Origin: Pseudomonadota bacterium
GTDB taxonomy: Bacteria; Pseudomonadota; Gammaproteobacteria; Xanthomonadales; Rhodanobacteraceae
NCBI GenBank assembly: GCA_029561145.1
Contig: JAKQJM010000026.1
Coordinates: 1 to 59,512, forward strand
Direction: 5' to 3'
Length of the DNA: 59,512 bases
The first letter of the stretch is position 1; every line of letters begins with the position of its first letter. Below, piece after piece: positions 7,192 to 59,512 of the stretch. The notes beneath the pieces are model-generated. The model searched no databases. It was not told the DNA's origin and saw nothing but the letters and a program-made list of their open reading frames with translations. Position numbers and translations under genes: made by a program.

Positions 7192-7371
7192 TTTTCCTTC
7201 TCCAGTCGCACGGGGGAAGCCGACGCAGAGAGAGGAGCGGTATTCGCCCCGAGTCGGTTATTCCTTCTCCCGCTACGCGGGAGAAGGTCCCGCAAGGAAT
7301 GGGGTATTCACCCCAAGTCGACTGTTCCTTCTCCCGCCACGCGGGAGAAGGTCCCGCAGGGGGATGAGGGG
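7192..7371. repeat. Three tandem copies of a palindromic intergenic repeat
   Basis: This fills most of the 319-bp gap between ppiA and lpxH. Copies begin at about 7192, 7261 and 7324. The second and third contain an 11-bp perfect stem (CCTTCTCCCGC, 3-nt loop, GCGGGAGAAGG at 7263-7287 and 7327-7351) followed by GTCCCGCA; the first has decayed. The arms resemble the CTCTCCCGC-type intergenic palindromes common in high-GC proteobacteria. The hairpins could act as terminators or mRNA stabilisers. No gene is supported here. Confidence 0.75.
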
Positions 7372-45862: not shown

Positions 45863-47692
45863 ATGTCTATCGAAAAACTCCGCAATATTGCGATCGTCGC
45901 GCACGTCGACCATGGCAAGACGACCCTGGTTGATTGCCTCCTGAAGCAATCCGGCACCTTCAGCGAGCGCACCGTGCTTGCCGAACGCGTGATGGATTCG
46001 AACGATCAGGAAAAGGAGCGTGGCATCACGATCCTGTCCAAGAACACCGCGATCACCTGGCGCGACAACCGCATCAATATCGTCGACACGCCCGGACACG
46101 CCGATTTCGGCGGCGAAGTCGAGCGCGTGCTGTCGATGGTGGATACCGTGCTGATCCTTGTCGATGCGATGGATGGCCCGATGCCGCAGACGCGGTTCGT
46201 CACCCAGAAAGCCTTCGAGATGGGCTTCAAGCCGATCGTCGTGATCAACAAGGTCGACCGCCCCGGCGCGCGTCCCGACTGGGTGCTCAATGCGACGTTC
46301 GACCTGTTCGATCGTCTCGGAGCGACCGATGAGCAGCTCGACTTCCCGGTTGTCTACGCCTCGGCGCTGCACGGCTATGCCGGGCTTGAAGCCGACGTGC
46401 GCGAAGGCGACATGACACCGCTGTACGAAGCGATCATGAAGCACGTGTCGCCGCCGCAGGTCGATCCGGACGGTCCGTTCCAGATGCGCATCAGCCAGCT
46501 CGACTACAGCAACTATGTCGGCCTGATCGGCATTGGCCGCATCCAGCGCGGCAAGGTGCGCACGAACATGCAGGTCGCCGTCGTCGACAAGGATGGCAAG
46601 AAGCGCAACGCAAAGGTCCTGCAGGTGCTCGGTTTCATGGGACTGGAGCGGCGCGAAGTGGCCGAGGCCGAAGCGGGCGACATCATCGCGATCAACGGCA
46701 TCGAGGGCCTCGGTATTTCCGACACGATCTGCGCGCCGGAAGCGCCCGAACAGTTGCCCGTGCTGCACGTCGATGAGCCGACGATCAGCATGACCTTCCA
46801 GGTCAACAACTCACCTTTTGCCGGGGTCAAGGACCACAGCGGCGGCAAGTTCCTGACCAGCCGGCAGATCCGCGAGCGACTGCTTCGCGAAACACTGCAC
46901 AACGTCGCCATGAAGGTCGAGGAAACCGAGGATCCGGACAAGTTCAAGGTGTCCGGCCGCGGCGAACTGCATCTGTCCGTGCTGATCGAAACGATGCGCC
47001 GCGAGGGTTACGAGCTCGCCGTGTCGCGCCCCGAAGTCATCATCAAGGAAATCGACGGGGTCCTGCAGGAACCGTATGAACAACTTGTCGTCGACATGGA
47101 AGAGCAGTTCCAGGGTGGCGTCATGGAACGCCTCGGCATGCGCCGCGGCAAGCTCGTCAACATGGAACTCGATGGGCGCGGCCGCGCCCGCCTCGAGTAC
47201 ATGATTCCGGCACGCGGCCTGATCGGCTTCCAGACCGAGTTCCGCACGGTCACCGCCGGCACCGGCCTGCTGTTCCACGTTTTCGATCACTACGGCCCAC
47301 GTTCCGAAGGCGCGATCGCCAAACGCCAGAACGGCGTCATGATCTCGAATGGACAGGGCCCGTCGCCCGCGTATTCGCTGATCAGCCTGCAGGAGCGCGG
47401 ACGCCTGCTCATCAGCGAAGGCGACGAGATCTACGAAGGCCAGCTTGTCGGCATCCACGCCAAGGACAATGACCTCACGGTCAACGCCCTGCGCGCCAAG
47501 CAGATGACCAATATCCGCGCTGCCGGCAAGGATGAAACCGTGCAGCTGACTCCGCCGATCAGGATGTCGCTCGAACAGGCGCTCGAGTTCATCGAGGACG
47601 ACGAACTTGTCGAAGTCACGCCGAAGCACATCCGCCTGCGCAAGAAGCATCTGACCGAGAACGATCGCAAGCGCGCCTCACGCGCCGCCTGA
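45863..47692 (+). CDS. typA: Translational GTPase TypA/BipA
   Basis: The 609-residue ribosome-associated GTPase has the full G-domain motif set: G1 AHVDHGKTT (about 13-21), G2 in KERGITI, G3 DTPGHADF (about 76-83), G4 NKVD (about 130-133) and G5 SAL. Elongation-factor-like domains and the TypA-specific C-terminal domain follow. [28 protein letters not shown] is typical. TypA acts in ribosome assembly and in stress and cold responses. ATG 45863 gives the family's normal length; the longer open frame upstream is not conserved. The PP-loop gene starts 7 nt downstream. Confidence 0.97.
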
Positions 47693-47699
47693 TCGGTCC

Positions 47700-49289
47700 G
47701 TGCCGACCCCGCTCCTGCTCGCCTGGAGCGGCGGAAAGGATTCCCTGATGGCACTGGATCGGTCGCCTGCCGATCCGGAATGGGCGGCAAGAGGCTTGCT
47801 GGCTACGCTGGATCGAACGGGCGACCGCGTGGCCATGCACGACGTGCGCGGCGATCTCCTGCGCGAGCAGGTCGATGCGCTTGGCTTCCCGCTGATCGAG
47901 ATGGCCATCGAGAGTTCCGCGTCGAACGTCGCCTACGAGTCCGCTCTGGGATCGGCACTCGACGAGGCACGCACACGAATACCGGGACTGGACCACATCG
48001 CGTTCGTCGATCTTTTCCTCGCCGAACTGCGCGCATGGCGCGAAGCATCGCTGGATCGAATCGGCTGGAACACCGTCTTTCCGCTCTGGCACACACCGAC
48101 CCGCGAACTGGCCGACGCGTTCATCGCGCCCGGTCATCGGGCACTGGTAACCACCGTCGACCTCGAACAATTGGATGGCGGGCACTGCGGGCGCGAATTC
48201 GATGCCAGTTTCCTGGCCGACCTGCCCGCTTCGATCGATCCGTGCGGTGAGAGCGGCGAATTCCACACGTTTTGCCACAACAGCCCCTTGTTCGACAGGC
48301 CGCTGGTGCTCGAACGCCGGGAAATGACGACACGAACGGGGCGATTCCACTACATCGATCTTCACTGCGCTGACCAGGCGCCGGAACTGCCCGGACGATC
48401 ACTGCATCCGTGCAGGAACACGCAACGTATATCGGATCATTGCAATTATCCCACGCGTGCGACCATGTCGAAGCACATCGCGAGCACTTCTCGCTGCACG
48501 CTCCACCGGGCGCTGTCCATTTGTTCATTGCTCGCTGGCCTGGCCATTTCGGGCCGTTGTGTCGCTCATGCGCCCATCGAGCACTACGAAGGCACCGCCT
48601 TCGATCCAGCGGGACGTGCGCTCTACACCGAATCGCACTGGAACCGTGGCAGCGCCGACGACAATACGCGCGTGATCCTTTTCAAGTGTCCCGATGGCAA
48701 GGCATTCGCGCGCAAGCACGTGGAAGATGCGGGCGAGGCGCAGGCGCCGCTGTTCGAGCTCGATGACCACCGCAGCGGCTATCGTGAAGGCGTGCGCAAG
48801 GCGGCGAACGGAAAGCGCGAAGTGTTCGTCCGCCGGAGCCGGGATCAGCCCGAGCAGACCGCCCTGATCGCATCGAAGCCTGGGCTTGTCATCGACGCGG
48901 GGTTTGATCGCTTCATCGTCAGGCATTGGGATGAACTCGTCGCGGGCGGCAAGCAGAGAGTGGAATTCCTCCTCCCGAGCAGGATGCGGACCTATTCGTT
49001 CGTTCTGAATCCGCTCGGTGCCGACTCGATCGACGGCCTCCCCGTACAGCGCTTCCGGCTCGAACTCGACGCATGGTTCGGTTTCGTCGTCCCTTCGATC
49101 GATGTGGCCTACGCCAGTGACACGAAGTTCATCCGCGAGTACGCGGGCGTCTCGAACATCCGCGACAACCGCGGCAGGAACCTCAGGGTGCGCATCGACT
49201 TTCCGCCCGCTTCCCGATCGAGCAATGCGAGTGCGCAGGATCTTGCCGCCGCCGAGACGATCCGTCTCGGCGGCGACTGCATGCTTTGA
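47700..49289 (+). CDS. PP-loop ATPase (Dph6-like) reading frame continuous with a downstream secreted protein
   Basis: This single uninterrupted frame of 529 residues looks like two genes joined. Residues 1-222 are an adenine-nucleotide alpha-hydrolase domain of the diphthine-ammonia ligase-like group, with PP-loop LLAWSGGKDSLMALD (6-20) and the family C-terminus DPCGESGEFHTF...FHYIDL. Residues about 223-255 are Cys/Arg/His-rich and look like translated leader. From residue 256 (ATG 48465) a complete signal peptide and a secreted protein follow. No stop codon separates them, although related single-domain proteins end near residue 225. GTG 47700 lies 7 nt after typA. Either the stop was lost, giving a fusion, or the sequence has an error here. 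Confidence 0.7.
   Translation: MPTPLLLAWSGGKDSLMALDRSPADPEWAARGLLATLDRTGDRVAMHDVRGDLLREQVDALGFPLIEMAIESSASNVAYESALGSALDEARTRIPGLDHIAFVDLFLAELRAWREASLDRIGWNTVFPLWHTPTRELADAFIAPGHRALVTTVDLEQLDGGHCGREFDASFLADLPASIDPCGESGEFHTFCHNSPLFDRPLVLERREMTTRTGRFHYIDLHCADQAPELPGRSLHPCRNTQRISDHCNYPTRATMSKHIASTSRCTLHRALSICSLLAGLAISGRCVAHAPIEHYEGTAFDPAGRALYTESHWNRGSADDNTRVILFKCPDGKAFARKHVEDAGEAQAPLFELDDHRSGYREGVRKAANGKREVFVRRSRDQPEQTALIASKPGLVIDAGFDRFIVRHWDELVAGGKQRVEFLLPSRMRTYSFVLNPLGADSIDGLPVQRFRLELDAWFGFVVPSIDVAYASDTKFIREYAGVSNIRDNRGRNLRVRIDFPPASRSSNASAQDLAAAETIRLGGDCML
48403..48433 (+). promoter_or_regulatory. Putative ECF sigma promoter, copy 1
   Basis: TGCATCCG (48403-48410), 15 nt, CGTATATC (48426-48433). 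All 16 bases and the spacing are identical to the element at 51214-51244. It lies 31 nt before ATG 48465 and inside the apparent read-through tail of the PP-loop gene. The CATCC -35 and CGTAT-like -10 fit ECF promoter style. Confidence 0.7.
48465..49289 (+). CDS. Secreted protein of unknown function, probable independent gene in the ECF regulon
   Basis: The 274-residue product starts MSKHIASTSRCTLHRALSIC, a signal peptide with the hydrophobic core LSICSLLAGLAISG and a probable cleavage after CVAHA. The mature domain is mixed alpha/beta with KCPDGKAFARKHVEDAG, LDAWFGFVVPSIDVAY and RIDFPPASRS; I recognise no named family. It is in frame with the PP-loop gene upstream, but its own signal peptide and the putative ECF promoter at 48403-48433 argue that it is a separate gene. 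The next genes are a DUF4345-like membrane protein, the ECF sigma factor and the anti-sigma factor. Translation initiation has no clear Shine-Dalgarno sequence. Confidence 0.7.
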   Translation: MSKHIASTSRCTLHRALSICSLLAGLAISGRCVAHAPIEHYEGTAFDPAGRALYTESHWNRGSADDNTRVILFKCPDGKAFARKHVEDAGEAQAPLFELDDHRSGYREGVRKAANGKREVFVRRSRDQPEQTALIASKPGLVIDAGFDRFIVRHWDELVAGGKQRVEFLLPSRMRTYSFVLNPLGADSIDGLPVQRFRLELDAWFGFVVPSIDVAYASDTKFIREYAGVSNIRDNRGRNLRVRIDFPPASRSSNASAQDLAAAETIRLGGDCML

Positions 49290-49345
49290 TCCAGCTCGGT
49301 CGATGATGTCTACTCCGTTTCCTAACAAGCCGATGGAAGCCCGCC

Positions 49346-49723
49346 ATGACCGCCGCCTATCTCTGGATCAACGCCGTGCTCTATGCCCTGTTGGCCATCT
49401 GGTGCACATTGATGCCGGCAAGGACCTCGCAGTCGATCGGCTTCCTCGAGTTGTCGAGTTCAGGCCAGTCCGAGTACGCCGTGATCTACGGGGGCATGCA
49501 GTTTGGCTTCGCCTTCCTGTTCGCCTGGTCCGCCATGAGCGGGAACCATCGATTCGGCCTGGTCTTCTCGCTGGCCATCTACGTGCCGATCCTGCTGTTC
49601 AGGATTGTCAGCGTGGTGCGCTACTGGCCGGTTTCCACGACCACCCTCGCCACGGGCACACTCGAAATCGTGCTGACGGCATGCGCCATCCTGCTCTGGC
49701 TCGGTTCCCGCACGATCGACTGA
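49346..49723 (+). CDS. Small membrane protein, DUF4345-like
   Basis: The 125-residue product has four predicted membrane helices (about 4-24, 44-66, 72-92 and 98-120), with MQFGFAFLFAWSAMSGNHRFG between helices two and three. The layout fits DUF4345-type proteins; the assignment is tentative. It lies 56 nt after the secreted protein gene and 71 nt before the sigma factor gene, all on one strand, so it is probably part of the same transcript. It could sense or respond to membrane stress, but nothing in the sequence shows this directly. Confidence 0.75.
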   Translation: MTAAYLWINAVLYALLAIWCTLMPARTSQSIGFLELSSSGQSEYAVIYGGMQFGFAFLFAWSAMSGNHRFGLVFSLAIYVPILLFRIVSVVRYWPVSTTTLATGTLEIVLTACAILLWLGSRTID

Positions 49724-49794
49724 TCAGGAATGGTGAAAGACCGCGGAATCTTGTACGGTCTGAAACAACTGGCGAATCGAATCCGGGGTTGTCC

Positions 49795-50358
49795 GTGGCT
49801 GAGGCTGAATCACGTCCAGAAAGCAGCGACAGGCTGAACGACGTGCTGCTCGCCGTGGCTGGCGGTGACAGCGCAGCCTTCGAGAATCTCTACCGTACAA
49901 CTTCCGCGAAACTCTTCGGCATCTGCCTGCGCGTCCTTCCGCAGCGGGCCGAAGCCGAGGAGGTGCTGCAGGAAGTCTTCCTCGGCATCTGGCGCAAGGC
50001 CGGGCAGTTCGATGCGACTCGTGCGAGTGCCATGACCTGGCTGTCGATGATGACTCGGAACAAGGCGATCGATCGCTTGCGCGCCAACGCCAGTGCGCGT
50101 GCGCAGACGCCGATCGAGCTCGACGAGATCGAGGACGCTTCGACCGCCAGCGAGGTCGCCGAGATCGCGCAGGACAGGGAGCGCATCAACGCCTGCCTCG
50201 ATGAACTTGATGCGCCGCGACGCCAACTCGTCCGCGTCGCTTTTTTTGAAGGGGCCAGCTATGAAGAACTCGCGGAACGCAGCGGCAACCCCCTCGGCAC
50301 CGTGAAGAGCTGGATTCGTCGCAGCCTGATCAAGCTGAAAGCCTGCCTCGAGCGATGA
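49795..50358 (+). CDS. ECF RNA polymerase sigma factor
   Basis: The 187-residue product has sigma region 2 (about 15-85; AAFENLYRTTSAKLFGICLRVL, EEVLQEVFLGIWRK and the DNA-melting segment MTWLSMMTRNKAIDRLR) and region 4 (about 125-185; SYEELAERSGNPLGTVKSWIRRSLIKLKACL, a helix-turn-helix). Regions 1.1 and 3 are absent, as in ECF factors. The partner with an RskA-like anti-sigma domain points to the SigK/RskA-type ECF groups, whose promoters have a CATCC-like -35, in keeping with the elements found here. GTG 49795 is the preferred start; TTG 49789 is possible. The anti-sigma gene overlaps its stop by 4 nt. Confidence 0.9.
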   Translation: MAEAESRPESSDRLNDVLLAVAGGDSAAFENLYRTTSAKLFGICLRVLPQRAEAEEVLQEVFLGIWRKAGQFDATRASAMTWLSMMTRNKAIDRLRANASARAQTPIELDEIEDASTASEVAEIAQDRERINACLDELDAPRRQLVRVAFFEGASYEELAERSGNPLGTVKSWIRRSLIKLKACLER

Positions 50359-51077
50359 ACACGATCGATACGCGAAACGATCCTCCTCCGGGCGACATGG
50401 CCGCGGAATACGTGCTCGGCGTACTCGATGCACGAGAGCGACGCGCGGCCGAATCACGCATTGCCAGCGACAACGGCTTTGCGCGTGAAGTCGCTTTCTG
50501 GGAGTCTCGCTTCATGCCGTTGATGACCGAGATCTCGGCGGTGCCGGTCCCTGACTACGTCTGGACGCGGATCCGTTCCGCACTCGATCTCGCGCCGACA
50601 AGGCGGGGCCAGCAACAGCAATCCGGAATATGGGGAAGCCTCGCGTTCTGGCGCTGGATTGCCACGGCGGCATCTGCTGCGGCAGTGGCTTGCGCAATCC
50701 TCCTGTTCAACCCACCGACCACGGTGGAGCCGGTCGCTTCACTACCGATGGTCTCGACGCTTGCCGACGACAGCGGCGTTCCCGGGTTCGTCGCGATCGT
50801 CGATCGCTCCCGGGCCAGCATGACGATCACACCCCTGACCAGCGCACCTGTCGATGGCCGTGCCCACGAGCTCTGGCTGATCCCGGAAGGCCGGGCACCC
50901 GTCTCGCTCGGATTGCTCGACGCATCGCGCGCGCAGATCGTCAGGATTCCGGATCCGCTGCTTGTCGACGTCCGCAGCGGCGCGTTGTTCGCAGTCACGC
51001 TCGAATCACCCGAAGGCGCGCCGCATGCGGCACCCGCCGGGCCAATCGTCGCCAAGGGCGGAGTCGCCTCGCTGTAG
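50355..51077 (+). CDS. Anti-sigma factor, RskA-like
   Basis: The 240-residue product has a cytoplasmic anti-sigma domain (about 12-70; AAEYVLGVLDARERRAAESRIASD), a single membrane helix (about 96-117) and a periplasmic beta-rich RskA domain (about 130-240; RAHELWLIPEGRAPVSLGLLD). Its N-terminal helix lacks the HxxxCxxC zinc motif of ChrR/ZAS proteins, so it is not a ChrR-type sensor. It should hold the upstream sigma factor inactive until its periplasmic part is modified or proteolysed. The ATG overlaps the sigma stop, giving matched synthesis. Confidence 0.88.
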   Translation: MNTIDTRNDPPPGDMAAEYVLGVLDARERRAAESRIASDNGFAREVAFWESRFMPLMTEISAVPVPDYVWTRIRSALDLAPTRRGQQQQSGIWGSLAFWRWIATAASAAAVACAILLFNPPTTVEPVASLPMVSTLADDSGVPGFVAIVDRSRASMTITPLTSAPVDGRAHELWLIPEGRAPVSLGLLDASRAQIVRIPDPLLVDVRSGALFAVTLESPEGAPHAAPAGPIVAKGGVASL

Positions 51078-51213
51078 CAGCGATCAGGATCGCGACCTGG
51101 ATGTCGACACCACATGCCCGATCCACCTGAGCAAAGTTCCAATGCGATGAACGTGCTCGCCCGTTGGTGGGCATTGCATCGGCCGACTCCGAAGGGAGTC
51201 CTTCAGATCGACA

Positions 51214-51244
51214 TGCATCCGACGATCCTCGGGACACGTATATC
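51214..51244 (+). promoter_or_regulatory. Putative ECF sigma promoter, copy 2, for the lipid-modification operon
   Basis: TGCATCCG (51214-51221), 15 nt, CGTATATC (51237-51244), identical to the copy at 48403-48433. The spacer sequences differ while the two boxes do not. It lies 33 nt before ATG 51278 of the desaturase. Nothing else stands out in the 200-nt gap after the anti-sigma gene. Confidence 0.7.
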
Positions 51245-51277
51245 AGGACAGAATTACGGATCCGGACTTCCTGCCTG

Positions 51278-52243
51278 ATGTCGATCGAGCCCAGCAAGCC
51301 ATCCATGCCTGACTCGCAGAGCCGGATCGCGCGTACCTTGCGTCGCTGGTTCGACACCTCCGACGACGCGCCGCTCAATGACGATGCCGATCGCATCGAC
51401 TGGCTGCGCACGATTCCGTTCATCGCCATGCACGTGGCATGTTTCGCCGTGATCTGGGTCGGGTTTTCGTGGATCGCCCTGGTCGTCGCCAGCCTCCTCT
51501 ATGCCGTGCGCATGTTCGCCCTGACCGGCTTCTACCATCGCTACTTCGCGCATCGCGCATTCCGCACTTCACGCCCTGTGCAATTCTTCTTCGCCGCGAT
51601 TGGCGCGATGTGCGTGCAGCGCGGTCCGCTCTGGTGGGCGGCGCATCATCGTCATCATCATCGGCACACCGATACGCCTGAAGACATGCATTCGCCTCGC
51701 CAGCACGGATTCCTGCGCGCACACATGGGCTGGTTCCTGACACCGCGCGGCTTTCGCACGAACTGGGATGCGATCCCTGACCTGAGGGGATTGCCGGAAT
51801 TGCGCCTGCTCGATCGATTCGATCTGCTGATGCCGATCCTGCTGGCGACCGGCCTTTACTTTCTTGGCGACTGGCTTGGCATTTCCCATCCGGAACTCGG
51901 CACGAGCGGCGCGCAGATCCTGGTCTGGGGGTTTTTTGTTTCGACGGTCGTGCTGTTCCACGCCACAGTCACGATCAATTCGCTGGCCCATCAGTTCGGC
52001 ACGCGCAGGTTCGAGACGCGCGACGACAGCCGCAACAACTGGATGCTGGCCCTGATCACATTCGGCGAAGGCTGGCACAACAACCATCACCATTTCCCCG
52101 GCTCCGCACGGCAGGGATTCCGCTGGTGGGAGATCGACCTGACCTGGTACGGCCTCAAACTGCTGGCCGCAGTCGGTCTGGTCCGTGAACTCAAGCCCGT
52201 CCCGGTGGCATTGCTCCTGCGGCGCCCAGCGAGAACTGCGTGA
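51278..52243 (+). CDS. Membrane fatty acid desaturase (acyl-CoA delta-9 type)
   Basis: The 321-residue product has four or so membrane helices and the three histidine boxes of the di-iron desaturases: HRYFAH (about 88-93), HHRHHHRHTD (about 125-134) and EGWHNNHHHFPGSARQGF (about 264-281). It should introduce a double bond into a saturated acyl chain using O2 and a reductant. ATG 51278 is chosen over a longer open frame because it follows the putative ECF promoter at the right distance; Met10 is an alternative. Its stop overlaps the next start by 1 nt, the first link of a seven-gene operon. Confidence 0.9.
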   Translation: MSIEPSKPSMPDSQSRIARTLRRWFDTSDDAPLNDDADRIDWLRTIPFIAMHVACFAVIWVGFSWIALVVASLLYAVRMFALTGFYHRYFAHRAFRTSRPVQFFFAAIGAMCVQRGPLWWAAHHRHHHRHTDTPEDMHSPRQHGFLRAHMGWFLTPRGFRTNWDAIPDLRGLPELRLLDRFDLLMPILLATGLYFLGDWLGISHPELGTSGAQILVWGFFVSTVVLFHATVTINSLAHQFGTRRFETRDDSRNNWMLALITFGEGWHNNHHHFPGSARQGFRWWEIDLTWYGLKLLAAVGLVRELKPVPVALLLRRPARTA

Positions 52244-53487
52244 TGCGAATTGCCGTGATCGGATCAGGAATCGCAGGACTCGGCAGCGCGTGGATGCTTT
52301 CCCGAACACATGAGGTCGTGCTGTTCGAGAAGAACAAGACTCCTGGCGGACATACCGACACCCACGATATTCATCTGGGTGGGCAACGCCACGCGGTCGA
52401 CACGGGCTTCATCGTTTTCAATCATGAGCACTATCCGCTGCTGACCCGATTGTTCGCCGAGCTGGGCGTGCAGACCCAACCCACTACCATGAGCTTCTCC
52501 GCTCATGAGGAGGGTTCCGGCCTCGAATACAACGCCGGCAGCCTGGCCGGATTGTTCTGCCAGCCGCGCAACCTGACCAGTCCGCGTTTCTGGCGCATGC
52601 TCCGCGATCTGCGTCGCTTCTATCACGAAGCGCCGGAGCTGCTGTGCCAGACACCGCCCGGACCGACGCTCGGCGAGTATCTGCAATCGAACCGGTATTC
52701 GCCCGCATTCCGTGATTTCCATCTCGTGCCGATGGCATCGGCACTCTGGTCGTCGCCGTCGCGAGGTATCCTCGAATTCCCTGCCATTGAACTCGTTCGC
52801 TTCATGGCCAACCACCATATGCTGCAGATCAGCGGGCGGCCGGAATGGCGTGTCGTCAGCGGCGGATCGCAGCGCTACGTCGATGCCATGCGCAGGCGCT
52901 GGAACGTCGAGGAACGCCTCGACTGCCCTGTCCGCAGCGTGCGTCGACACCTGGCTCAGGTCAATGTGCACAGTGCCGCCGGCATCGAACCATTCGACCA
53001 GGTCGTCCTGGCCTGCCATTCCGACGATGCACTTGCCTTGCTCGGCGATGCAAGCGAGACCGAGCGCGCGATCCTGGGCGACCTTGGCTATCAGGACAAT
53101 GATGTCGTCCTGCATACCGACGCCGGTGTCCTTCCTGTGCATCGCCGCGCATGGGCAGCGTGGAATGCATACATTCCCGCCGATCATGATGCCCCGTGCT
53201 CGGTCAGTTACTGGATGAACGCCTTGCAGTCGATTGAGTCGAGTGAGCCGCTGATCGTCAGCCTCAATCGCAGCCAGCAGATCTCTCCCGAAAGGATCCT
53301 GCGTCGCATGACCTATCGCCACCCCGTGCAGACCCTGGCTTCGGCAACCGCACGTCGGCGCAAGACCGAAATCCAGGGCAAGCGCGGAATCTGGTTTGCC
53401 GGCGCCTATTGGGGATACGGTTTCCACGAAGACGGCTTGCGCAGCGCGATCGAGATCGCGGATGCATTGGGAGCCAATAGCGCATGA
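52243..53487 (+). CDS. FAD-dependent oxidoreductase, flavin amine oxidase-like
   Basis: The 414-residue product has an N-terminal dinucleotide fold (AVIGSGIAGLGSAWML, residues 4-19, followed by LFEKNKTPGGHTDTH, which ends in the FAD-binding motif) and a C-terminal FAD segment WFAGAYWGYGFHEDGLRSAIEIAD. It belongs to the group encoded next to DUF1365 and cyclopropane-synthase-like genes, several of which act on methylated or unsaturated acyl chains. Start choice: ATG 52243 overlaps the desaturase stop by 1 nt; the GTG 3 nt earlier is equally open. DUF1365 starts 4 nt before its end. Confidence 0.9.
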   Translation: MRIAVIGSGIAGLGSAWMLSRTHEVVLFEKNKTPGGHTDTHDIHLGGQRHAVDTGFIVFNHEHYPLLTRLFAELGVQTQPTTMSFSAHEEGSGLEYNAGSLAGLFCQPRNLTSPRFWRMLRDLRRFYHEAPELLCQTPPGPTLGEYLQSNRYSPAFRDFHLVPMASALWSSPSRGILEFPAIELVRFMANHHMLQISGRPEWRVVSGGSQRYVDAMRRRWNVEERLDCPVRSVRRHLAQVNVHSAAGIEPFDQVVLACHSDDALALLGDASETERAILGDLGYQDNDVVLHTDAGVLPVHRRAWAAWNAYIPADHDAPCSVSYWMNALQSIESSEPLIVSLNRSQQISPERILRRMTYRHPVQTLASATARRRKTEIQGKRGIWFAGAYWGYGFHEDGLRSAIEIADALGANSA

Positions 53488-54362
53488 CACGACTCGCTGC
53501 CCCGCACATCCGAAACGCTGCGGCACACCCTCTCGGCGAAGGCGCCTCTACGACGGAGAATGCGGTGTCTCACGGATCGAGCACGCACGAACTCGCCAGC
53601 GCCATCTATGCAGGCAAGGTGCAGCATCGTCGGCATGCGCCACATGCGCATGCATTCTCGTATCGCACAGCCATGCTGTACCTCGACCTCGCCGAGCTGG
53701 ACAGGGTCTTTGCAAGACGCTGGCTCTGGTCAAGCCGGGCCCGCAACCTCGCCGAGTTCCGTCGCAGCGACTATCTCGGCGACTCCAGGCAATCGCTCGA
53801 CGACGCAGTGCGCATGCGCGTCGCCGACGCGATCGGCCGTGCGCCGGAAGGCCCGATACGCCTGCTCACGCATCTTCGCTACTTCGGCCACAGCTTCAAT
53901 CCGGTCAGCTTCTACTACTGTTTCGAGGCCGACGGAAAGACGCTCGATGTCGTCGTCGCCGAGATCACGAATACGCCGTGGAAGGAGCGGCACGCCTACA
54001 TCCTCCCGGTTGCGACAGCGGAGCATCACGGCATCTCGATGTCATGGCATTTCGCCAAGGCATTCCATGTATCGCCATTCATGGCGATGCAGCACGACTA
54101 CAGATGGCGGCTGATAGCGCCGGGCAAGTCCCTGCTCATCCACATGGACGTGCTGGATCGCAGTCCCGACTGCCGCCGCAGGTTTGACGCCACGCTGGCC
54201 CTGACACGCCAGTCGATCACCGCCGCGAACCTCGCCCGGATCCTGTTGCGTTTTCCTCTGATGACGACACGGATTGTCGGCGCGATTCATTGGCAGGCGC
54301 TGCGTCTGTGGTTGCGCGGCAACCCCGTCCACGATCATCCAGACAACAACAAGGCTGCCTGA
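53484..54362 (+). CDS. DUF1365 family protein
   Basis: The 292-residue product carries the family hallmark LRYFGHSFNPVSFYYCFE (about 131-148) and NTPWKERHAYIL (about 163-174), then HVSPFMAMQHDYRWR. DUF1365 proteins occur almost only beside flavin amine oxidase-like and cyclopropane-synthase-like genes; I know of no proven reaction. The first 30 residues are a poorly conserved, hydrophilic extension, so a later start cannot be excluded, though ATG 53484 gives the 4-nt overlap typical of this operon. The methyltransferase gene begins 2 nt after the stop. Confidence 0.9.
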   Translation: MTRLAAPHIRNAAAHPLGEGASTTENAVSHGSSTHELASAIYAGKVQHRRHAPHAHAFSYRTAMLYLDLAELDRVFARRWLWSSRARNLAEFRRSDYLGDSRQSLDDAVRMRVADAIGRAPEGPIRLLTHLRYFGHSFNPVSFYYCFEADGKTLDVVVAEITNTPWKERHAYILPVATAEHHGISMSWHFAKAFHVSPFMAMQHDYRWRLIAPGKSLLIHMDVLDRSPDCRRRFDATLALTRQSITAANLARILLRFPLMTTRIVGAIHWQALRLWLRGNPVHDHPDNNKAA

Positions 54363-54364
54363 GC

Positions 54365-55657
54365 ATGAACACCCGCGACATCACGACTTCCGATTCTTCG
54401 GAGATCCTGGCAGGGGCTGCGCGTAGCGATGCCCCGCTGCTCGATCGCATGCTGCGCAAACGCATGCTCGACATGCTCAGGGGTTTGCGCGATTGCCGCA
54501 TCACGATCGAGGAGGGCAACGGGACACACGTGCTCGGTACTCCGGCGGGCATGGCCAGTGACACCCTTGTCGCGCATGTCCGCATCCATGACTCTTCGTT
54601 CTACCGCCAGGTCGGCTTGTACGGCAGTGTCGGCGCTGGCGAAGCCTACATGGACGGCCTCTGGGACTGCGACGATCTGGTCGTGCTGACGAGGATCCTC
54701 GTGCGCAATCGCGATCGTCTTGATGCGATGGAGGGTGGCGTTGCGCGGATCGGCTGCGGCCTCCTGCGTGCATGGGGCGCGCTGATGCGGAACACGCGCA
54801 AGGGCAGTCGTCGCAACATCGCTGCGCACTACGATCTTGGCAACGACCTATTCAAATTGTTCCTCGACGACAATCTCATGTACTCGTCGGCAATCTATGA
54901 AAGCGAAGACGAAACCATCGACGTGGCATCGGCACGCAAGCTCGATCGCATCTGCCGGAAGCTACAGCTCGGCCCGCAGCATCATGTGCTCGAAATCGGC
55001 ACTGGCTGGGGGGGATTTGCCCTGCATGCGGCTACACATTCCGGTTGCCGGGTCACGACGACGACGATTTCGCGCGAACAGCATGATCTCGCCCGAAAGC
55101 GCATCGATGCGGCTGGCCTGAGCGACCGCGTGACCCTCCTGCTGGAGGACTATCGCGACCTCAAGGGCAGCTATGACCGCGTCGTTTCGATCGAGATGAT
55201 CGAAGCGATTGGCCACCAGTACCTCGATTCCTATTTCCGCACCGTCAATCGCCTGCTGAAGCCCGATGGCATGGCCTTGATCCAGGCGATCACGATCGAG
55301 GATCATCGCTACAAGCAGGCCCTCAAAGCGGTCGATTTCATCAAGCGCCACATCTTTCCCGGGAGCTTCATCCCCTCGATCAGCGTGATGGGCAGTGCGA
55401 TCGGGCGCAACAGCGACATGAAGCTCTACAACCTGGAAGACATTGGGCCGAGCTATGCGCTGACCCTGCGCGCCTGGCGCACACGCTTCCTCGATCGCAT
55501 CAGCGACGTGCGCGCCCTCGGCTATCCGGAGCGCTTCATCCGCATGTGGGTTTTCTACCTGACCTACTGCGAGGGTGGCTTCCTCGAGCGCTCGATCGGT
55601 GATGTACAGATGCTGTTGTGCAAACCCGCGGCGCGTCCCCGGCAATATGCGCCGTGA
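54365..55657 (+). CDS. Cyclopropane-synthase-like SAM methyltransferase with an altered active site
   Basis: The 430-residue product has an N-terminal helical lipid-binding region (about 1-145) and a SAM-binding Rossmann domain with VLEIGTGWGGFALHAA (about 206-221), then RVTTTTISREQ. Compared with E. coli Cfa, the bicarbonate-site cysteine (Cys139) is Ser175 in MYSSAIY, and the histidine equivalent to His266 is Gln307 in ALIQAI. Glu280 is kept, but the following His is Ala281. Such a site fits a group that methylates unsaturated chains without forming a cyclopropane, as in methyl-branched or furan fatty acid pathways; that is inference. ATG 54365 follows the DUF1365 stop by 2 nt. Confidence 0.9.
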   Translation: MNTRDITTSDSSEILAGAARSDAPLLDRMLRKRMLDMLRGLRDCRITIEEGNGTHVLGTPAGMASDTLVAHVRIHDSSFYRQVGLYGSVGAGEAYMDGLWDCDDLVVLTRILVRNRDRLDAMEGGVARIGCGLLRAWGALMRNTRKGSRRNIAAHYDLGNDLFKLFLDDNLMYSSAIYESEDETIDVASARKLDRICRKLQLGPQHHVLEIGTGWGGFALHAATHSGCRVTTTTISREQHDLARKRIDAAGLSDRVTLLLEDYRDLKGSYDRVVSIEMIEAIGHQYLDSYFRTVNRLLKPDGMALIQAITIEDHRYKQALKAVDFIKRHIFPGSFIPSISVMGSAIGRNSDMKLYNLEDIGPSYALTLRAWRTRFLDRISDVRALGYPERFIRMWVFYLTYCEGGFLERSIGDVQMLLCKPAARPRQYAP

Positions 55658-55727
55658 TCGACATGACCCCTGTTACAACGACGCCTGTTCTCATGCAGAT
55701 TCCACGCACCGGCCGAGTGCAAACGGC

Positions 55728-56282
55728 ATGAGGAACGCAATCAACTTCGTCGCTTTCCAGCTGGTCTGGTTCGCTGCGGTCGGCGGCGCGGCACATTCGC
55801 TCTGGTGGGCGGGGCCTGCGGCGTTCCTGTTTTTTGCCGCTTATCACCTGCGTCGTGGAGTGCGCGCACGCGGCGATCTCAGGTTGATGGTGCTGGCTCT
55901 TGGACTCGGTTTCGTCACGGACACGCTGATGGCGGCTACCGGCATGTCGAGCTATTCCTCCGCGGTCCCGCCCGCGCCGCTCGCACCGCTCTGGATACTT
56001 TCGTTGTGGGCAGGATTCGCCTTCACCCTCAATCATTCGATGCACTGGCTGACGGCACGCCCGCTGCTCGTATCTCCGCTCGCCGCGATCCTCGGACCAC
56101 TGTCCTACTACGGCGCCAGTCGCGTATGGGGCGCCGTCACGATCACGGCGCCGCTGATGCATGCTGTCGGCCTATTGGGCCTGTGCTGGTTGCTCTCGAT
56201 GGCCGTGCTGAGTCTTGCCGCACGACGTTTCGCGCGCGCTCCCGATGATTCCGTTGCAATGCCTTTGATGAGGTCGCCATGA
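55728..56282 (+). CDS. DUF2878 family membrane protein
   Basis: The 184-residue product is almost entirely hydrophobic, with about six membrane helices and the conserved-looking turn LWILSLWAGFAFTLNHSMHWL (about 96-116). DUF2878 proteins accompany DUF1365 and cyclopropane-synthase-like genes in proteobacteria; their role is unknown to me. ATG 55728 is chosen because the first helix starts there; the upstream open frame lies inside the previous gene's end. A 70-nt gap precedes it, and the next gene overlaps by 4 nt. Confidence 0.88.
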   Translation: MRNAINFVAFQLVWFAAVGGAAHSLWWAGPAAFLFFAAYHLRRGVRARGDLRLMVLALGLGFVTDTLMAATGMSSYSSAVPPAPLAPLWILSLWAGFAFTLNHSMHWLTARPLLVSPLAAILGPLSYYGASRVWGAVTITAPLMHAVGLLGLCWLLSMAVLSLAARRFARAPDDSVAMPLMRSP

Positions 56283-57064
56283 GCGATACCGTCTTGATCG
56301 CGATCGTTTGGGTCGGTGCCAGCGCGATCATGGTCGGCGGCTGGTTTTACCAGCGCCGCACGCGCAATGCCGGCATCGTCGACGTGTTGTGGTCGGCCTG
56401 CATGGCGGTGAGCGCCATGTTCTATGCAATCACCGGCTCCGGCGCATCCCTGCCGCGCCTGCTCGTCGCTGTACTCGGCGCAAGCTGGGGGTTGCGTCTC
56501 GCCTGGCATCTCTGGTTGCGCGTGAGCCGTGAGGACGAAGATGGCCGTTATGTCCAGTTGCGCAAACGCTGGAATGACGACCAAAGCAAATTCCTCGCTT
56601 TCTTTCTCGTCCAGGGCCTGTTCACCGCCCTCTTCTCATTGCCATTCTGGATCGCTGCGCACAACCCGACCGAAGCCTGGACGGTCTGGACCTCGCTCGC
56701 CGTCAGCACGTGGATCATCGCGCTGGTTGGCGAATGGATCGCCGACCACGAACTGGCGCGCCATCGCGCCGACCCTTCGATGAAGGGCAAGACCTGCCGT
56801 CGCGGCTTGTGGAAAGTCTCGCGCCATCCAAATTACTTCTTCGAGTGGCTGCATTGGTTCGCCTATGTGTTCCTGGCAGTCGGCACCGGCAGCGGAGGAG
56901 TACTGGCGAGTCTTGCCGGCCCCGCGTTGATGCTCGCGACATTGTGCTGGGTCACCGGCATTCCCTACACCGAAGCACAAGCGCTGCGCACACGCGGCGA
57001 CGACTACCGCGACTATCAACGCACGACCAGCGCCCTGATTCCGTGGCTTCCGCGCAAATCCTGA
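56279..57064 (+). CDS. DUF1295 family membrane protein (steroid 5-alpha-reductase-like)
   Basis: The 261-residue product has about six membrane helices. The C-terminal part carries the family signature LWKVSRHPNYFFEWLHWFAYVFLAVG (about 179-204) and a late YTEAQALRTRGDDYRDYQRTTSALIPWLP, resembling isoprenylcysteine methyltransferases and steroid 5-alpha-reductases. It may reduce or modify a lipid double bond. The ATG overlaps the DUF2878 stop by 4 nt. In related clusters this family sits next to the same genes, which supports one pathway. Confidence 0.9.
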   Translation: MSDTVLIAIVWVGASAIMVGGWFYQRRTRNAGIVDVLWSACMAVSAMFYAITGSGASLPRLLVAVLGASWGLRLAWHLWLRVSREDEDGRYVQLRKRWNDDQSKFLAFFLVQGLFTALFSLPFWIAAHNPTEAWTVWTSLAVSTWIIALVGEWIADHELARHRADPSMKGKTCRRGLWKVSRHPNYFFEWLHWFAYVFLAVGTGSGGVLASLAGPALMLATLCWVTGIPYTEAQALRTRGDDYRDYQRTTSALIPWLPRKS

Positions 57065-57089
57065 CACCGTTTCGATCGAGGATCCGATC

Positions 57090-58184
57090 ATGAGCAGCCA
57101 AACCCTTGCAGCAGAATCGATGGATGGTGAATCCGGCATCGAACGCGAAAGTACCCTGACGCGATGGGCCGAGCGTGGCCGCATCCCGGACGGCCTGCTG
57201 CGCCTGGGGATCCGTCGTCAGTGCTCGGCGCGCCTGATCGAAGAACATGCCTTGGGAGTCGAAGCTACCGCCGAGCGCCAGCGTATGCGCATCGACGAGC
57301 TTCGCGGCAGCCCGATCGCGATCGAGACCGATGCGGCCAACGCGCAGCACTATGAGCTGCCGCCGCCGTTCTTCAGACTCTGCCTTGGTCGGAACCTCAA
57401 ATACAGCGCGTGCTACTGGGATGCCGGCACGCCCGATCTCGATGCCGCCGAGGCGCGAATGCTCGTTCTGTACGGCGAACGCGCCGAGCTGGCCGACGGC
57501 CAGCGCATTCTCGAACTCGGCTGCGGCTGGGGTTCATTGACGCTGTGGATGGCCGCCCGGTATCCGAACGCACGAATCACCGCTGTCTCGAATTCGTGCC
57601 CACAACGAGAGTTCATCGAGGCGCTTTGCCGGGAACGCGGACTCGACAACATCGAGATCATCACCGTCGATGTCAATCAGCTCAGCCTCGACGAGCAGCG
57701 CTTCGACCGCGTGGTGTCGATCGAGATGTTCGAGCACATGCGCAACTACGAACACCTGCTGCAACGCATCGGCTCATGGCTGGCACCGGGCGGCAAGCTT
57801 TTCGTCCACATTTTCTGTCACAGGAGCCTCGCATATCCCTTTGAAACAGCAGGCACGGACAACTGGATGGGTCGCCACTTCTTCACGGGTGGCCTGATGC
57901 CGGCCGCCGATACCCTGCTCCATTTCCAGAAGCACATCCAGATCGAGGAACGCTGGCTACTCCCCGGCACACACTACGAAAAAACCGCCAATGCCTGGCT
58001 GTCGAATCAGGACCGGAATCGCCAACAGGTCCTGGGAATCCTGGCTGCGACGTACGGCTCCGAATCGGCACGGCTCTGGCATCAGCGCTGGCGCATGTTC
58101 TGGATGGCCTGCGCGGAGTTGTTCGGCTATGCCGATGGCTCCGAGTGGCTGGTCGCCCACTATCGGTTTGCACGACAGCGATAG
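57090..58184 (+). CDS. Second cyclopropane-synthase-like SAM methyltransferase with an intact bicarbonate site
   Basis: The 364-residue product has SAM motif ILELGCGWGSLTLWMAARYPN (about 139-159). Unlike the paralogue at 54365, all the Cfa bicarbonate-site positions are kept: Cys108 in KYSACYW, Glu215-His216 in EMFEHM, and His240 in LFVHIFCH. The short N-terminal region (about 1-85) resembles coclaurine N-methyltransferase-like members of the superfamily more than classic Cfa, so the substrate might not be a phospholipid. It lies 25 nt after DUF1295 and ends the operon; the M64 peptidase gene starts 65 nt later. Confidence 0.9.
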   Translation: MSSQTLAAESMDGESGIERESTLTRWAERGRIPDGLLRLGIRRQCSARLIEEHALGVEATAERQRMRIDELRGSPIAIETDAANAQHYELPPPFFRLCLGRNLKYSACYWDAGTPDLDAAEARMLVLYGERAELADGQRILELGCGWGSLTLWMAARYPNARITAVSNSCPQREFIEALCRERGLDNIEIITVDVNQLSLDEQRFDRVVSIEMFEHMRNYEHLLQRIGSWLAPGGKLFVHIFCHRSLAYPFETAGTDNWMGRHFFTGGLMPAADTLLHFQKHIQIEERWLLPGTHYEKTANAWLSNQDRNRQQVLGILAATYGSESARLWHQRWRMFWMACAELFGYADGSEWLVAHYRFARQR

Positions 58185-58249
58185 CGATGGCCGTTCGATG
58201 GCATCCTATTGCAACCGATGCCCATGAGCGGCACCACCAGGCTTCAATC

Positions 58250-59512
58250 ATGTCTTTTTCCAGACTCCTGTTTCTTTCTCCCTTCCTGCTTCTCGCATCG
58301 CTGGCCGCCACCGCGGCGCAACCTGGCACGCTGCGTGTCGACTACATGCACAGCGGCAACGCGTTGCAGGACATCTACAGTCTCGACAAGATCGTCAAGG
58401 AACCGTTGCCGTGGCCTGGCAACCTCGACCAGCGCATCGATGGCCTCAACCGCGGCGCGTATTTCTTCGAGGTCGTGGAACCGACCTCCGGCGCGATCCT
58501 TTATTCGCGCGGTTTCAGTTCGATCTTCGGCGAATGGCGGACCACGCCGGAGGCGCGCCAGCAAAACCGGAGCTTCAGCGAATCGCTGCGCTTTCCGATG
58601 CCCGGCCAGGCGGTACGGATTCGCCTGTACGCACGCGACGACCGCAACGAATTCTCGATGGTCTGGACGCTCGATGTAGACCCTGCCGACACCGATGTGC
58701 GATCGGCGCACGCTCCCCTGGCTTCGCCGGTTGTGGCGATCCGCAGCAATGGCGATCCGCAGGACAAGGTTGATCTGCTGATCCTCGGCGACGGCTACAC
58801 CGAAGCCGAACGCACGAGGTTCATCGCCGATGCGCGCCGACTGAGCGACGCGCTGTTTGCAGTCTCCCCGTTCAAGGATCGCGCGGGTGATTTCAACGTG
58901 TGGGCGTTGATGGCGGCCGCACCGCAATCCGGAGTCGCTCGTCCGTCGAGCGGCATGCATCGATGGACGCCCCTCGGCACACGCTATGACGCCTTCGGCA
59001 GCGAGCGCTATGTGCTTACCTTCGAGAACCAGGCCTTGCGCGAACTCGCGCAGAACGCGCCATACGAGTTCGTCGAGATCCTTGTCAACAACGAGACCTA
59101 TGGTGGCGGCGGCATCTACGGCCTGTACAGCACCGCGGCGGCGAAAAGCGAATGGGCGCCGTATCTGTTCGTCCATGAATTCGGCCACCATTTCGCCGGC
59201 CTCGCCGACGAGTATTACACCTCGCCAGTGAGCTATGAGACTGGCGGCACCATGCGCCGCGAGCCCTGGGAGCCCAACGTGACCGCCCTCCACGACCCGG
59301 CTCGGCTGAAATGGCGTGACCGCGTTGCCAGCGACACAGCGCTGCCGACAGCCTGGCCCAAGGAGGCATTTGAAACGCACCAGCGCGAGTACCAGAAAGT
59401 ACGGGCTGACTTGCGCGCACGGAAGCGCCCCGAAAGCGAGATGAACGCCTTGTTCCATCGGGAACAACGCATCGAGGACGAACTCTTCATGTCCTCCGCG
59501 AACAAGACCCGG
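58250..59512 (+). CDS. Secreted M64 family zinc metallopeptidase (3' truncated by window edge)
   Basis: The frame is open from ATG 58250 to the end of the window (421 residues) without a stop. It has a signal peptide (about 1-24, ending ATAAQ), an N-terminal beta-sandwich (about 25-165) and a catalytic domain starting VDLLILGDGYTEAERTRF (about 180-197). The zinc motif HEFGHHFAGLADEYY (about 309-323) is the extended HExxHxxxGLxDE signature of M64 (IgA peptidase) enzymes. The last 50 residues are charged and insert-like. It is separated from the lipid operon by 65 nt, so it may be read through from it. Start has only a weak ribosome binding site. Confidence 0.9.
   Translation, partial: MSFSRLLFLSPFLLLASLAATAAQPGTLRVDYMHSGNALQDIYSLDKIVKEPLPWPGNLDQRIDGLNRGAYFFEVVEPTSGAILYSRGFSSIFGEWRTTPEARQQNRSFSESLRFPMPGQAVRIRLYARDDRNEFSMVWTLDVDPADTDVRSAHAPLASPVVAIRSNGDPQDKVDLLILGDGYTEAERTRFIADARRLSDALFAVSPFKDRAGDFNVWALMAAAPQSGVARPSSGMHRWTPLGTRYDAFGSERYVLTFENQALRELAQNAPYEFVEILVNNETYGGGGIYGLYSTAAAKSEWAPYLFVHEFGHHFAGLADEYYTSPVSYETGGTMRREPWEPNVTALHDPARLKWRDRVASDTALPTAWPKEAFETHQREYQKVRADLRARKRPESEMNALFHREQRIEDELFMSSANKTR

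What the first reader, a model, noticed from the sequence alone, without database searches (positions are those of the whole stretch)
48403..51244. Identical bipartite ECF-type promoter element at two sites flanking the sigma/anti-sigma pair
Seen: TGCATCCG-N15-CGTATATC occurs at 48403-48433 and 51214-51244, on the same strand, with all 16 box bases and the spacing identical and the spacers different. The two elements sit 31 and 33 nt before plausible ATGs (48465, 51278). The sigma factor and anti-sigma genes lie between them. Known: ECF factors recognise two conserved boxes about 15-17 nt apart, and M. tuberculosis SigK, which is paired with RskA, uses a CCATCC-type -35. Inferred: this is the target of the local ECF factor. 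One copy drives the secreted protein, DUF4345, sigma and anti-sigma genes (autoregulation); the other drives the lipid operon.
Basis: partly seen in the sequence, partly recalled or inferred. Interest (0 to 1): 0.85.

Follow-up and report, generated by a model that had tools for sequence, protein, structure and literature searches.

The report
SigK-type promoter pair beside lipid operon
Two copies of one promoter signal probably let a SigK-like stress sigma factor switch on both its own gene and a neighbouring set of membrane-lipid genes; this is a new member of a known kind, but some related bacteria appear to run the same lipid genes with a different sigma factor tied to light stress, which hints at what the poorly understood SigK system senses.

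Summary
Confirmed: TGCATCCG-N15-CGTATATC lies at 48403-48433 and 51214-51244, 31 and 33 nt before ATGs that flank a sigma/anti-sigma pair. Such a pair alone is not significant (shuffled windows hold about 15 comparable matches), but comparison settles it. In 80 loci chosen by sigma similarity, TGCATCC-N16-CGTAT (one spacer of 17; at most 1 mismatch) precedes 37 of 37 homologous desaturase genes and 16 of 16 homologous secreted-protein genes, on the coding strand, with a start codon 27-37 nt later; boxes hold, spacers vary. Where the lipid operon is inverted, moved or unlinked, the element goes with it. The sigma factor is SigK-like (nearest solved structure SigK, both SigK cysteines kept); the anti-sigma carries RskA_C. 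Transcription was not tested. Beyond the finding: in one genus, taken to be Stenotrophomonas, 74 of 91 genomes hold the operon; 22 have a SigK-type sigma linked to it and 49 an ECF11-type, none both. The two regulators seem exchangeable, so SigK-RskA may sense a photooxidative or lipid-oxidation signal. New member of a known kind.

The parts
48403..48433 (+). Upstream promoter element P1: TGCATCCG (-35-like) N15 CGTATATC (-10-like)
   Evidence: conserved before the homologous secreted-protein gene in 16 of 16 cases in the 80 loci
48465..49289 (+). secreted-protein gene, no family found; homologues follow the element elsewhere
   Evidence: no Pfam hit up to E 1; homologues; secretion judged by eye from the N-terminus
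49346..49723 (+). small protein, DUF4345-like below the curated cut-off (E 0.013)
   Evidence: kept beside sigma in L062, L063, L172, L173, L176
49795..50358 (+). ECF sigma factor, SigK-like (start GTG 49795 or TTG 49789)
   Evidence: Sigma70_r2, Sigma70_r4_2; best solved structure 4nqw SigK E 4e-31; Cys134 and Cys184 in line with two cysteines of SigK
50355..51077 (+). anti-sigma factor with RskA_C domain
   Evidence: PF10099 E 2.9e-18
51214..51244 (+). Downstream promoter element P2: TGCATCCG N15 CGTATATC
   Evidence: conserved before the homologous desaturase in 37 of 37 cases in the 80 loci
51278..52243 (+). fatty acid desaturase, first gene of the lipid operon
   Evidence: PF00487 E 1.7e-24
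52240..53487 (+). FAD oxidoreductase, UfaD-like by domain
   Evidence: PF01593, PF13450; UfaD described as having a predicted NAD-FAD-binding domain
53484..54362 (+). DUF1365 protein, UfaO-like by domain
   Evidence: PF07103 E 7.2e-83; UfaO homologues contain DUF1365
54362..55657 (+). cyclopropane synthase-like methyltransferase
   Evidence: PF02353 E 3.1e-78
55626..56282 (+). DUF2878 protein (start not settled)
   Evidence: PF11086 E 1.2e-37
56279..57064 (+). DUF1295 protein
   Evidence: PF06966 E 1.3e-67
57090..58184 (+). second cyclopropane synthase-like methyltransferase
   Evidence: PF02353 E 1.3e-34

Best explanation
The two elements are promoters of the SigK-like ECF sigma factor encoded between them. 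RskA-like anti-sigma holds the sigma factor; on an envelope or oxidative signal it is released, RNA polymerase starts at P1 (48403-48433) and makes more secreted protein, DUF4345-like protein, sigma and anti-sigma (autoregulation), and at P2 (51214-51244) and makes the membrane-lipid operon 51278-58184 (desaturase, UfaD-like, DUF1365, two cyclopropane synthase-like enzymes, DUF2878, DUF1295). Shown here: the sequences, their conservation with a narrow spacing to the start codons, and their movement with the target genes. Inferred: recognition by this sigma factor, co-transcription, the signal and the lipid product.
For: Element before 37 of 37 desaturase and 16 of 16 secreted-protein homologues in 80 loci found by sigma similarity alone, none antisense, against 8 of 85 sigma genes, 2 of 38 ufaD and 0 of 81 anti-sigma genes; 117 elements against 5 for the reversed pattern over 1.33 Mb. 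In 69 of 69 elements before these genes (80 loci plus 11 regions, window left out) an in-frame start codon lies 27-37 nt after CGTAT; mean spacer identity 37% in the 68 with spacing 16. The desaturase is not right after the anti-sigma in 9 of 37 loci, 2 of them inverted, and keeps the element in all 9; unlinked desaturases in G020 and Rhodanobacter sp. C05 have it 33 and 31 nt before the ATG. In D. immobilis the secreted-protein gene is not found but an exact element remains ahead of DUF4345-sigma. Sigma is SigK-like with both cysteines. No sigma in the own genome is closer to the ECF11 query than the window's own. SigK of M. tuberculosis is described as autoregulated via Rv0449cp, and the SigK locus includes UfaA1.
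Against: No transcript, start site or sigma-dependence was measured in this organism. Only 2 exact elements are in the genome; the 5 other hits with one mismatch are at background. In 20 genomes without the sigma (at E 1e-20) the forward pattern with one mismatch also exceeds its reverse, 204 against 62 hits (my sums), so the reversed control understates chance. An ECF11 sigma factor uses TGATCC-N16-CGTA, so the motif is not private to SigK types. In the extra 11 regions 1 of 11 desaturases (L176) and 1 of 7 secreted-protein genes (L177) lack it. In 7 of the 20 ECF11-linked Stenotrophomonas-group loci the desaturase has no element within 400 nt, though the gene ahead of it does. 7 of 9 other same-genus genomes lack the sigma at E 1e-20.
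Confidence: 0.9

Rival explanations
1. The elements are real ECF promoters, but a second ECF sigma factor encoded elsewhere (for instance an ECF11 type) uses them as well as, or instead of, the local one.
For: The ECF11 consensus TGATCC-N16-CGTA from ChIP-seq in P. syringae differs little. In 49 of 74 operon-bearing genomes of another genus an ECF11-type sigma sits beside the same operon, and locus L182, labelled ECF11 by best tblastn score (its anti-sigma was not scanned), has the exact element before the desaturase.
Against: In G000 the best match to the ECF11 query is the window's own sigma (E 2e-23); the next is E 3e-12, and only 5 sigma genes reach E 1e-6. SigK-linked Stenotrophomonas-group loci have T after CGTA in 10 of 10 matches, while ECF11-linked loci vary there.
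Confidence: 0.07
2. The two sites are a chance or duplicated sequence without promoter function.
For: Shuffled windows hold about 15 such 8+8 entries.
Against: Conservation across genera with variable spacers and narrow distance to the start codon.
Confidence: 0.01
3. The sites bind a transcription factor next to ordinary promoters.
For: A bipartite conserved site could in principle be an operator.
Against: Not palindromic, strand-specific, 27-37 nt before a start codon in 69 of 69, in the -35/-10 layout of ECF promoters; a consensus scan of 47600-59512 found one sigma-70-like site, at 52397, none by either element.
Confidence: 0.02

Closest known systems
SigK-RskA of the Mycobacterium tuberculosis complex and Yersinia enterocolitica (PMC7509140 introduction and passages, PMC10540498 passages)
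   Same: SigK-like sigma with both cysteines, anti-sigma with RskA_C next to it, autoregulation through an upstream promoter, lipid gene ufaA1 and neighbours in the regulon; fasciclin genes (MPT83-like, a likeness I recall) follow the element in related proteobacterial loci
   Different: here an extra desaturase, DUF2878 and second methyltransferase; lipid operon behind its own copy of the element; a secreted protein of unknown family beside the sigma gene
sigma-Ec/ChrR and operon smlt2375-2367 of Stenotrophomonas maltophilia (PMC11832516, passages and section 3.6)
   Same: same order of lipid genes, where named, behind a periplasmic protein gene; 165- to 697-fold up without ChrR in one RNA-seq run, reverted without sigma; a MEME box upstream of both transcripts
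RpoE-ChrR (ECF11) of Rhodobacter sphaeroides with ufaD/ufaO (PMC7380195 and PMC6852236, passages and one results part)
   Same: UfaD- and DUF1365-type genes under an ECF sigma factor
   Different: sigma and anti-sigma of another type; singlet oxygen signal not tested here

Membership tests
SigK-RskA type ECF system | sigma factor closest to SigK | tested here: met
   4nqw SigK E 4e-31 against 2q1z RpoE E 9e-23. The NCBIfam SigK model scores 166 bits, under its 226 cut-off; the best NCBIfam model is an unnamed sigma, 243 bits, under its 267 cut-off
SigK-RskA type ECF system | adjacent anti-sigma with RskA_C | tested here: met
   PF10099 67 bits, cut-off 29
SigK-RskA type ECF system | two redox cysteines (133/183 in SigK) | tested here: met
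   Cys134, Cys184 invariant in 8 of 8 aligned and in line with SigK cysteines 50 residues apart
SigK-RskA type ECF system | autoregulatory promoter | tested here: inconclusive
   element present and conserved; transcription not measurable here
SigK-RskA type ECF system | MPT83-like fasciclin gene in the regulon | tested here: inconclusive
   no fasciclin hit among the window genes scanned; the rest of the genome was not searched. Six genes behind the element in relatives, picked by eye, all hit fasciclin
ECF11-ChrR | anti-sigma with ChrR cupin domain | tested here: not met
   window anti-sigma has RskA_C and no cupin hit; cupin found in L214, L215
Furan fatty acid pathway (UfaM, UfaD, UfaO) | enzymes of these families that make a furan fatty acid | not testable with these tools
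   domains agree; product unknown, UfaM role of either methyltransferase not tested

The most novel reading that the evidence does not exclude
SigK-RskA and ECF11-ChrR are interchangeable controllers of one conserved membrane-lipid operon: evolution has exchanged them several times behind almost the same promoter. SigK-RskA, whose signal is described as unknown, would then sense the same class of signal as ChrR, namely singlet oxygen or oxidised membrane lipid.
Probability: 0.35. Interest if true: 0.72.

Novelty: new member of a known kind. Interest (0 to 1): 0.48.

Why it matters
The element gives a sharp, testable promoter for a SigK-type regulon in environmental proteobacteria and ties a lipid operon to it. 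More broadly, finding the same operon beside SigK-RskA in some species of a genus and beside ECF11-ChrR in others turns the open question of what SigK-RskA senses into a direct comparison: the ChrR branch is known to answer singlet oxygen, so the SigK branch can be tested for the same.

Tried and rejected
Looser pattern GCATCC-N14-18-CGTA in the own genome: no excess over the reversed control, dropped as a regulon finder. One-mismatch genome scans: about background in the own genome, high also in 20 genomes without the sigma. Chance test of the pair inside the window: not significant by itself, so I rested the case on comparison. A third target in Dokdonella (exact element 81 and 71 nt before the ATG of one secreted-protein gene in G002 and G006): the own genome holds only a 38% homologue on C50, and no strict element lies outside the window's contig, so not claimed. 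Sigma-70 promoter scan 1 hit (shuffles 2.6), terminator scan 8 (shuffles 7.0): nothing to build on. Anti-sigma against solved structures: no hit. Papers: Veyrier 2008 on the SigK regulon is not held, so the mycobacterial consensus was not checked. Full-text searches pairing SigK/RskA with cyclopropane, singlet oxygen, ChrR or furan fatty acids (in the last 12 of 49 papers listed) showed, by listing, no paper on the exchange in this operon; PMC7074977 does raise a possible gain of a sigK-rskA-like locus in R. capsulatus. That library only.
Full report
What was checked. The window is the whole of contig C104 of a 3.6 Mb draft genome of 149 contigs. Its nearest named relatives by sigma are Dokdonella (L062, L063, 78-79% identity). 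TGCATCCG-N15-CGTATATC is exact at 48403-48433 and 51214-51244 on the plus strand, 31 and 33 nt before ATG 48465 and ATG 51278. A strict core, GCATCCG-N14-16-CGTATA, occurs in this genome only at these 2 places, with 0 for the reversed pattern.

How much is chance. Taken as any same-strand pair of sites sharing 8+8 bases at spacing 13-19, such coincidences are common: 60 of 60 shuffled windows had some, mean 15.1 entries, range 5-31; the real window has 55, of which 21 come from one direct repeat. The pair alone is therefore weak evidence.

Comparison. A scan of one-genome-per-species contigs with the sigma protein gave 229 relatives, of which the best 80 were kept. These loci were chosen by the sigma protein, not by the element. 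I searched them with the window's proteins and with TGCATCC-N15-17-CGTAT, up to one mismatch. The element stands within 400 nt upstream, on the same strand, of 37 of 37 desaturase homologues (34 exact; 36 with spacing 16, 1 with 17) and 16 of 16 homologues of the 48465 protein (13 exact), with 0 antisense. Other genes: sigma 8 of 85, anti-sigma 0 of 81, ufaD 2 of 38, DUF1365 0 of 37, cmas 0 of 36, DUF2878 0 of 24, DUF1295 1 of 35, second methyltransferase 1 of 35, DUF4345 1 of 2, dph 0 of 2. Over 1.33 Mb there were 117 elements against 5 for the reversed pattern. 43 of the 80 loci hold no desaturase in the stored DNA. Related species are not independent, and the reversed control is lenient: over 20 genomes without the sigma (at E 1e-20; 20 of the 37 such genomes seen there) the forward pattern at one mismatch has 204 hits and the reverse 62 (my sums from the table). 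Either background gives less than one chance hit per thousand upstream regions (my arithmetic).

The anatomy is that of a promoter. In 69 elements before these two genes (53 in the 80 loci, 16 in 11 further regions that partly share species with them; window left out) an in-frame start codon lies 27-37 nt after CGTAT in 69 of 69, most often 31 (25 cases); bins of equal width at 38-48, 49-59 and 16-26 hold 5, 10 and 11, with at most the first four start codons kept per gene. In the 70 elements with spacing 16 (window included), which were picked with at most one mismatch, GCATCC and CGTA do not vary; the first base is T or C, the base after CGTA T, C or A; spacers agree at 37% on average. In the extra 11 regions 10 of 11 desaturases and 6 of 7 secreted-protein genes have the element.

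The element belongs to the target genes, not to the sigma gene. The desaturase is not right after the anti-sigma in 9 of 37 loci: opposite strand in L107 and L110, ahead of sigma in L105, L112, L126 and L130, further away in L080, L082 and L087; all 9 keep the element. Two desaturases away from the sigma, in G020 (about 300 kb off) and in Rhodanobacter sp. C05 (another contig), have it 33 and 31 nt before the ATG. In Dokdonella immobilis (L063) the secreted-protein gene is not found, yet an exact element remains ahead of DUF4345 and sigma, as expected if it also serves the sigma gene.

Which sigma factor. The protein at 49795-50358 has ECF regions 2 and 4. Its best solved structure is SigK of M. 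tuberculosis, 4nqw, E 4e-31; RpoE of R. sphaeroides is at 9e-23. Cys134 and Cys184 are invariant in 8 of 8 aligned relatives and in line with two cysteines of SigK 50 residues apart; the role of SigK cysteines 133 and 183 is described in PMC7509140 (introduction read). The anti-sigma has RskA_C and no cupin hit. No sigma of this genome is closer to the ECF11 query than this one. In other loci the element precedes genes of other families. Ten such genes, picked from the list, were sent to Pfam: six chosen by eye all have a fasciclin domain (a Xanthomonadaceae metagenome genome, Rhodanobacter, Burkholderia, a Rhizobiaceae genome, Pseudomonas, an alphaproteobacterial metagenome genome), two are methionine sulfoxide reductases (SelR), one an AhpC-type peroxiredoxin, one DUF6134. 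The mpb70/83 locus and the sigK locus with UfaA1 are the two known parts of the SigK regulon (PMC10540498, passages); that MPT70/83 are fasciclin-like I recall. The mycobacterial SigK consensus was not read (the 2008 paper is not held).

What the operon is likely to do. The order desaturase, FAD oxidoreductase, DUF1365, methyltransferase, DUF2878, DUF1295, methyltransferase matches the listed products of smlt2374-2368 of S. maltophilia where these are named. Those rose 197- to 507-fold without ChrR and fell back without sigma-Ec, in RNA-seq done once with qRT-PCR checks; the paper also derived a box upstream of both transcripts (PMC11832516, section 3.6 read; figures are not held). In R. sphaeroides UfaD and UfaO (DUF1365) make furan fatty acids (PMC7380195, passages and results part 1). 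That the window's operon makes such a lipid is inference.

Beyond the finding: exchange of regulators. Its loci fall into two kinds. In 10 of the 30 loci returned (of 74 with the desaturase) a SigK-type sigma and anti-sigma lie ahead of the desaturase; in 20 a sigma about 33-41% identical to the window's is divergent from it. For one locus of each kind I tested more: L067 has RskA_C and a sigma nearest 4nqw; L215 has a ChrR cupin anti-sigma and a sigma nearest 2q1z, with an oxidoreductase-like gene next (the cupin also in L214). Over 91 genomes, 74 hold the desaturase (E up to 1e-60), 23 the SigK-type sigma and 62 the ECF11-type (both E up to 1e-40). Cross-table of the 74 (linked means same contig within 5 kb): 49 have ECF11 linked and no SigK type; 22 have SigK linked (10 of them with ECF11 elsewhere); none has both linked; the 3 others, G180, G203 and G239, are drafts of 130 to 510 contigs. 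One further genome has ECF11 without the desaturase, 16 have none of the three. A tree of 79 desaturases, labelled by nearest sigma in the stored DNA, needs at least 4 label changes on well-supported branches; L180 is labelled ECF11 although a SigK type lies further along. Near SigK types the base after CGTA is T in 10 of 10 matches, near ECF11 types G 22, C 18, T 12, A 6 of 58 (chance matches not removed). ECF11 in P. syringae uses TGATCC-N16-CGTA (PMC5507510, passages): the same spacing from ATCC to CGTA, which would make exchange easy. In 7 of the 20 ECF11-linked loci the desaturase itself has no element within 400 nt, only the gene ahead of it (my count).

Why that may matter. PMC7509140 and PMC9861118 call the SigK signal unknown or obscure. 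R. capsulatus has a singlet-oxygen-induced pair closer to SigK-RskA than to RpoE-ChrR, and its authors already ask whether it was acquired as a sigK-rskA-like locus (PMC7074977). The same paper lists a fasciclin gene, RSP_1409, in the R. sphaeroides RpoE regulon, so the two regulator types share that kind of target too. Light raised two putative SigK targets in M. kansasii, though not dipZ between them (PMC9861118). With the exchange seen here, a shared signal class is a fair, untested hypothesis.

Verdict. The exchange is the part worth following.

Noticed in passing
47700-49289: One open frame runs from a Diphthami_syn_2 gene through promoter element P1 into the secreted-protein gene with no stop between; in L062 the first gene stops before the element. 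A one-base difference near the end of the first gene seems to be the cause, real or a draft error.
   Followed up: partly
L032 and L033, element at 1501: Two genomes of the window's genus (G002, G006) have an exact element 81 and 71 nt before the ATG of the same secreted-protein gene, a possible third target; the own genome has only a 38% homologue.
   Followed up: partly
L183-L212 and the genus of G121: The same lipid operon sits beside SigK-type sigma in some genomes and ECF11-type in others, in none of 74 beside both.
   Followed up: yes
L073, L105: Records titled Bacillus subtilis and Eremiobacteraeota carry loci like those of Stenotrophomonas and Dyella (the L073 desaturase fragment is identical to that of G243); probably mislabelled or contaminated.
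   Followed up: no
7261-7356: Near-identical sequence repeated 64 bases apart.
   Followed up: no
L072, L094, L098, L099, L117, L119, L122, L129, L131, L132, L133: Fasciclin-like genes follow the same element next to SigK-RskA-type pairs, with the start codon 46-51 nt after CGTAT instead of about 31. Only L072, L094, L099 and L132 of these were sent to Pfam; the others are judged by eye.
   Followed up: partly
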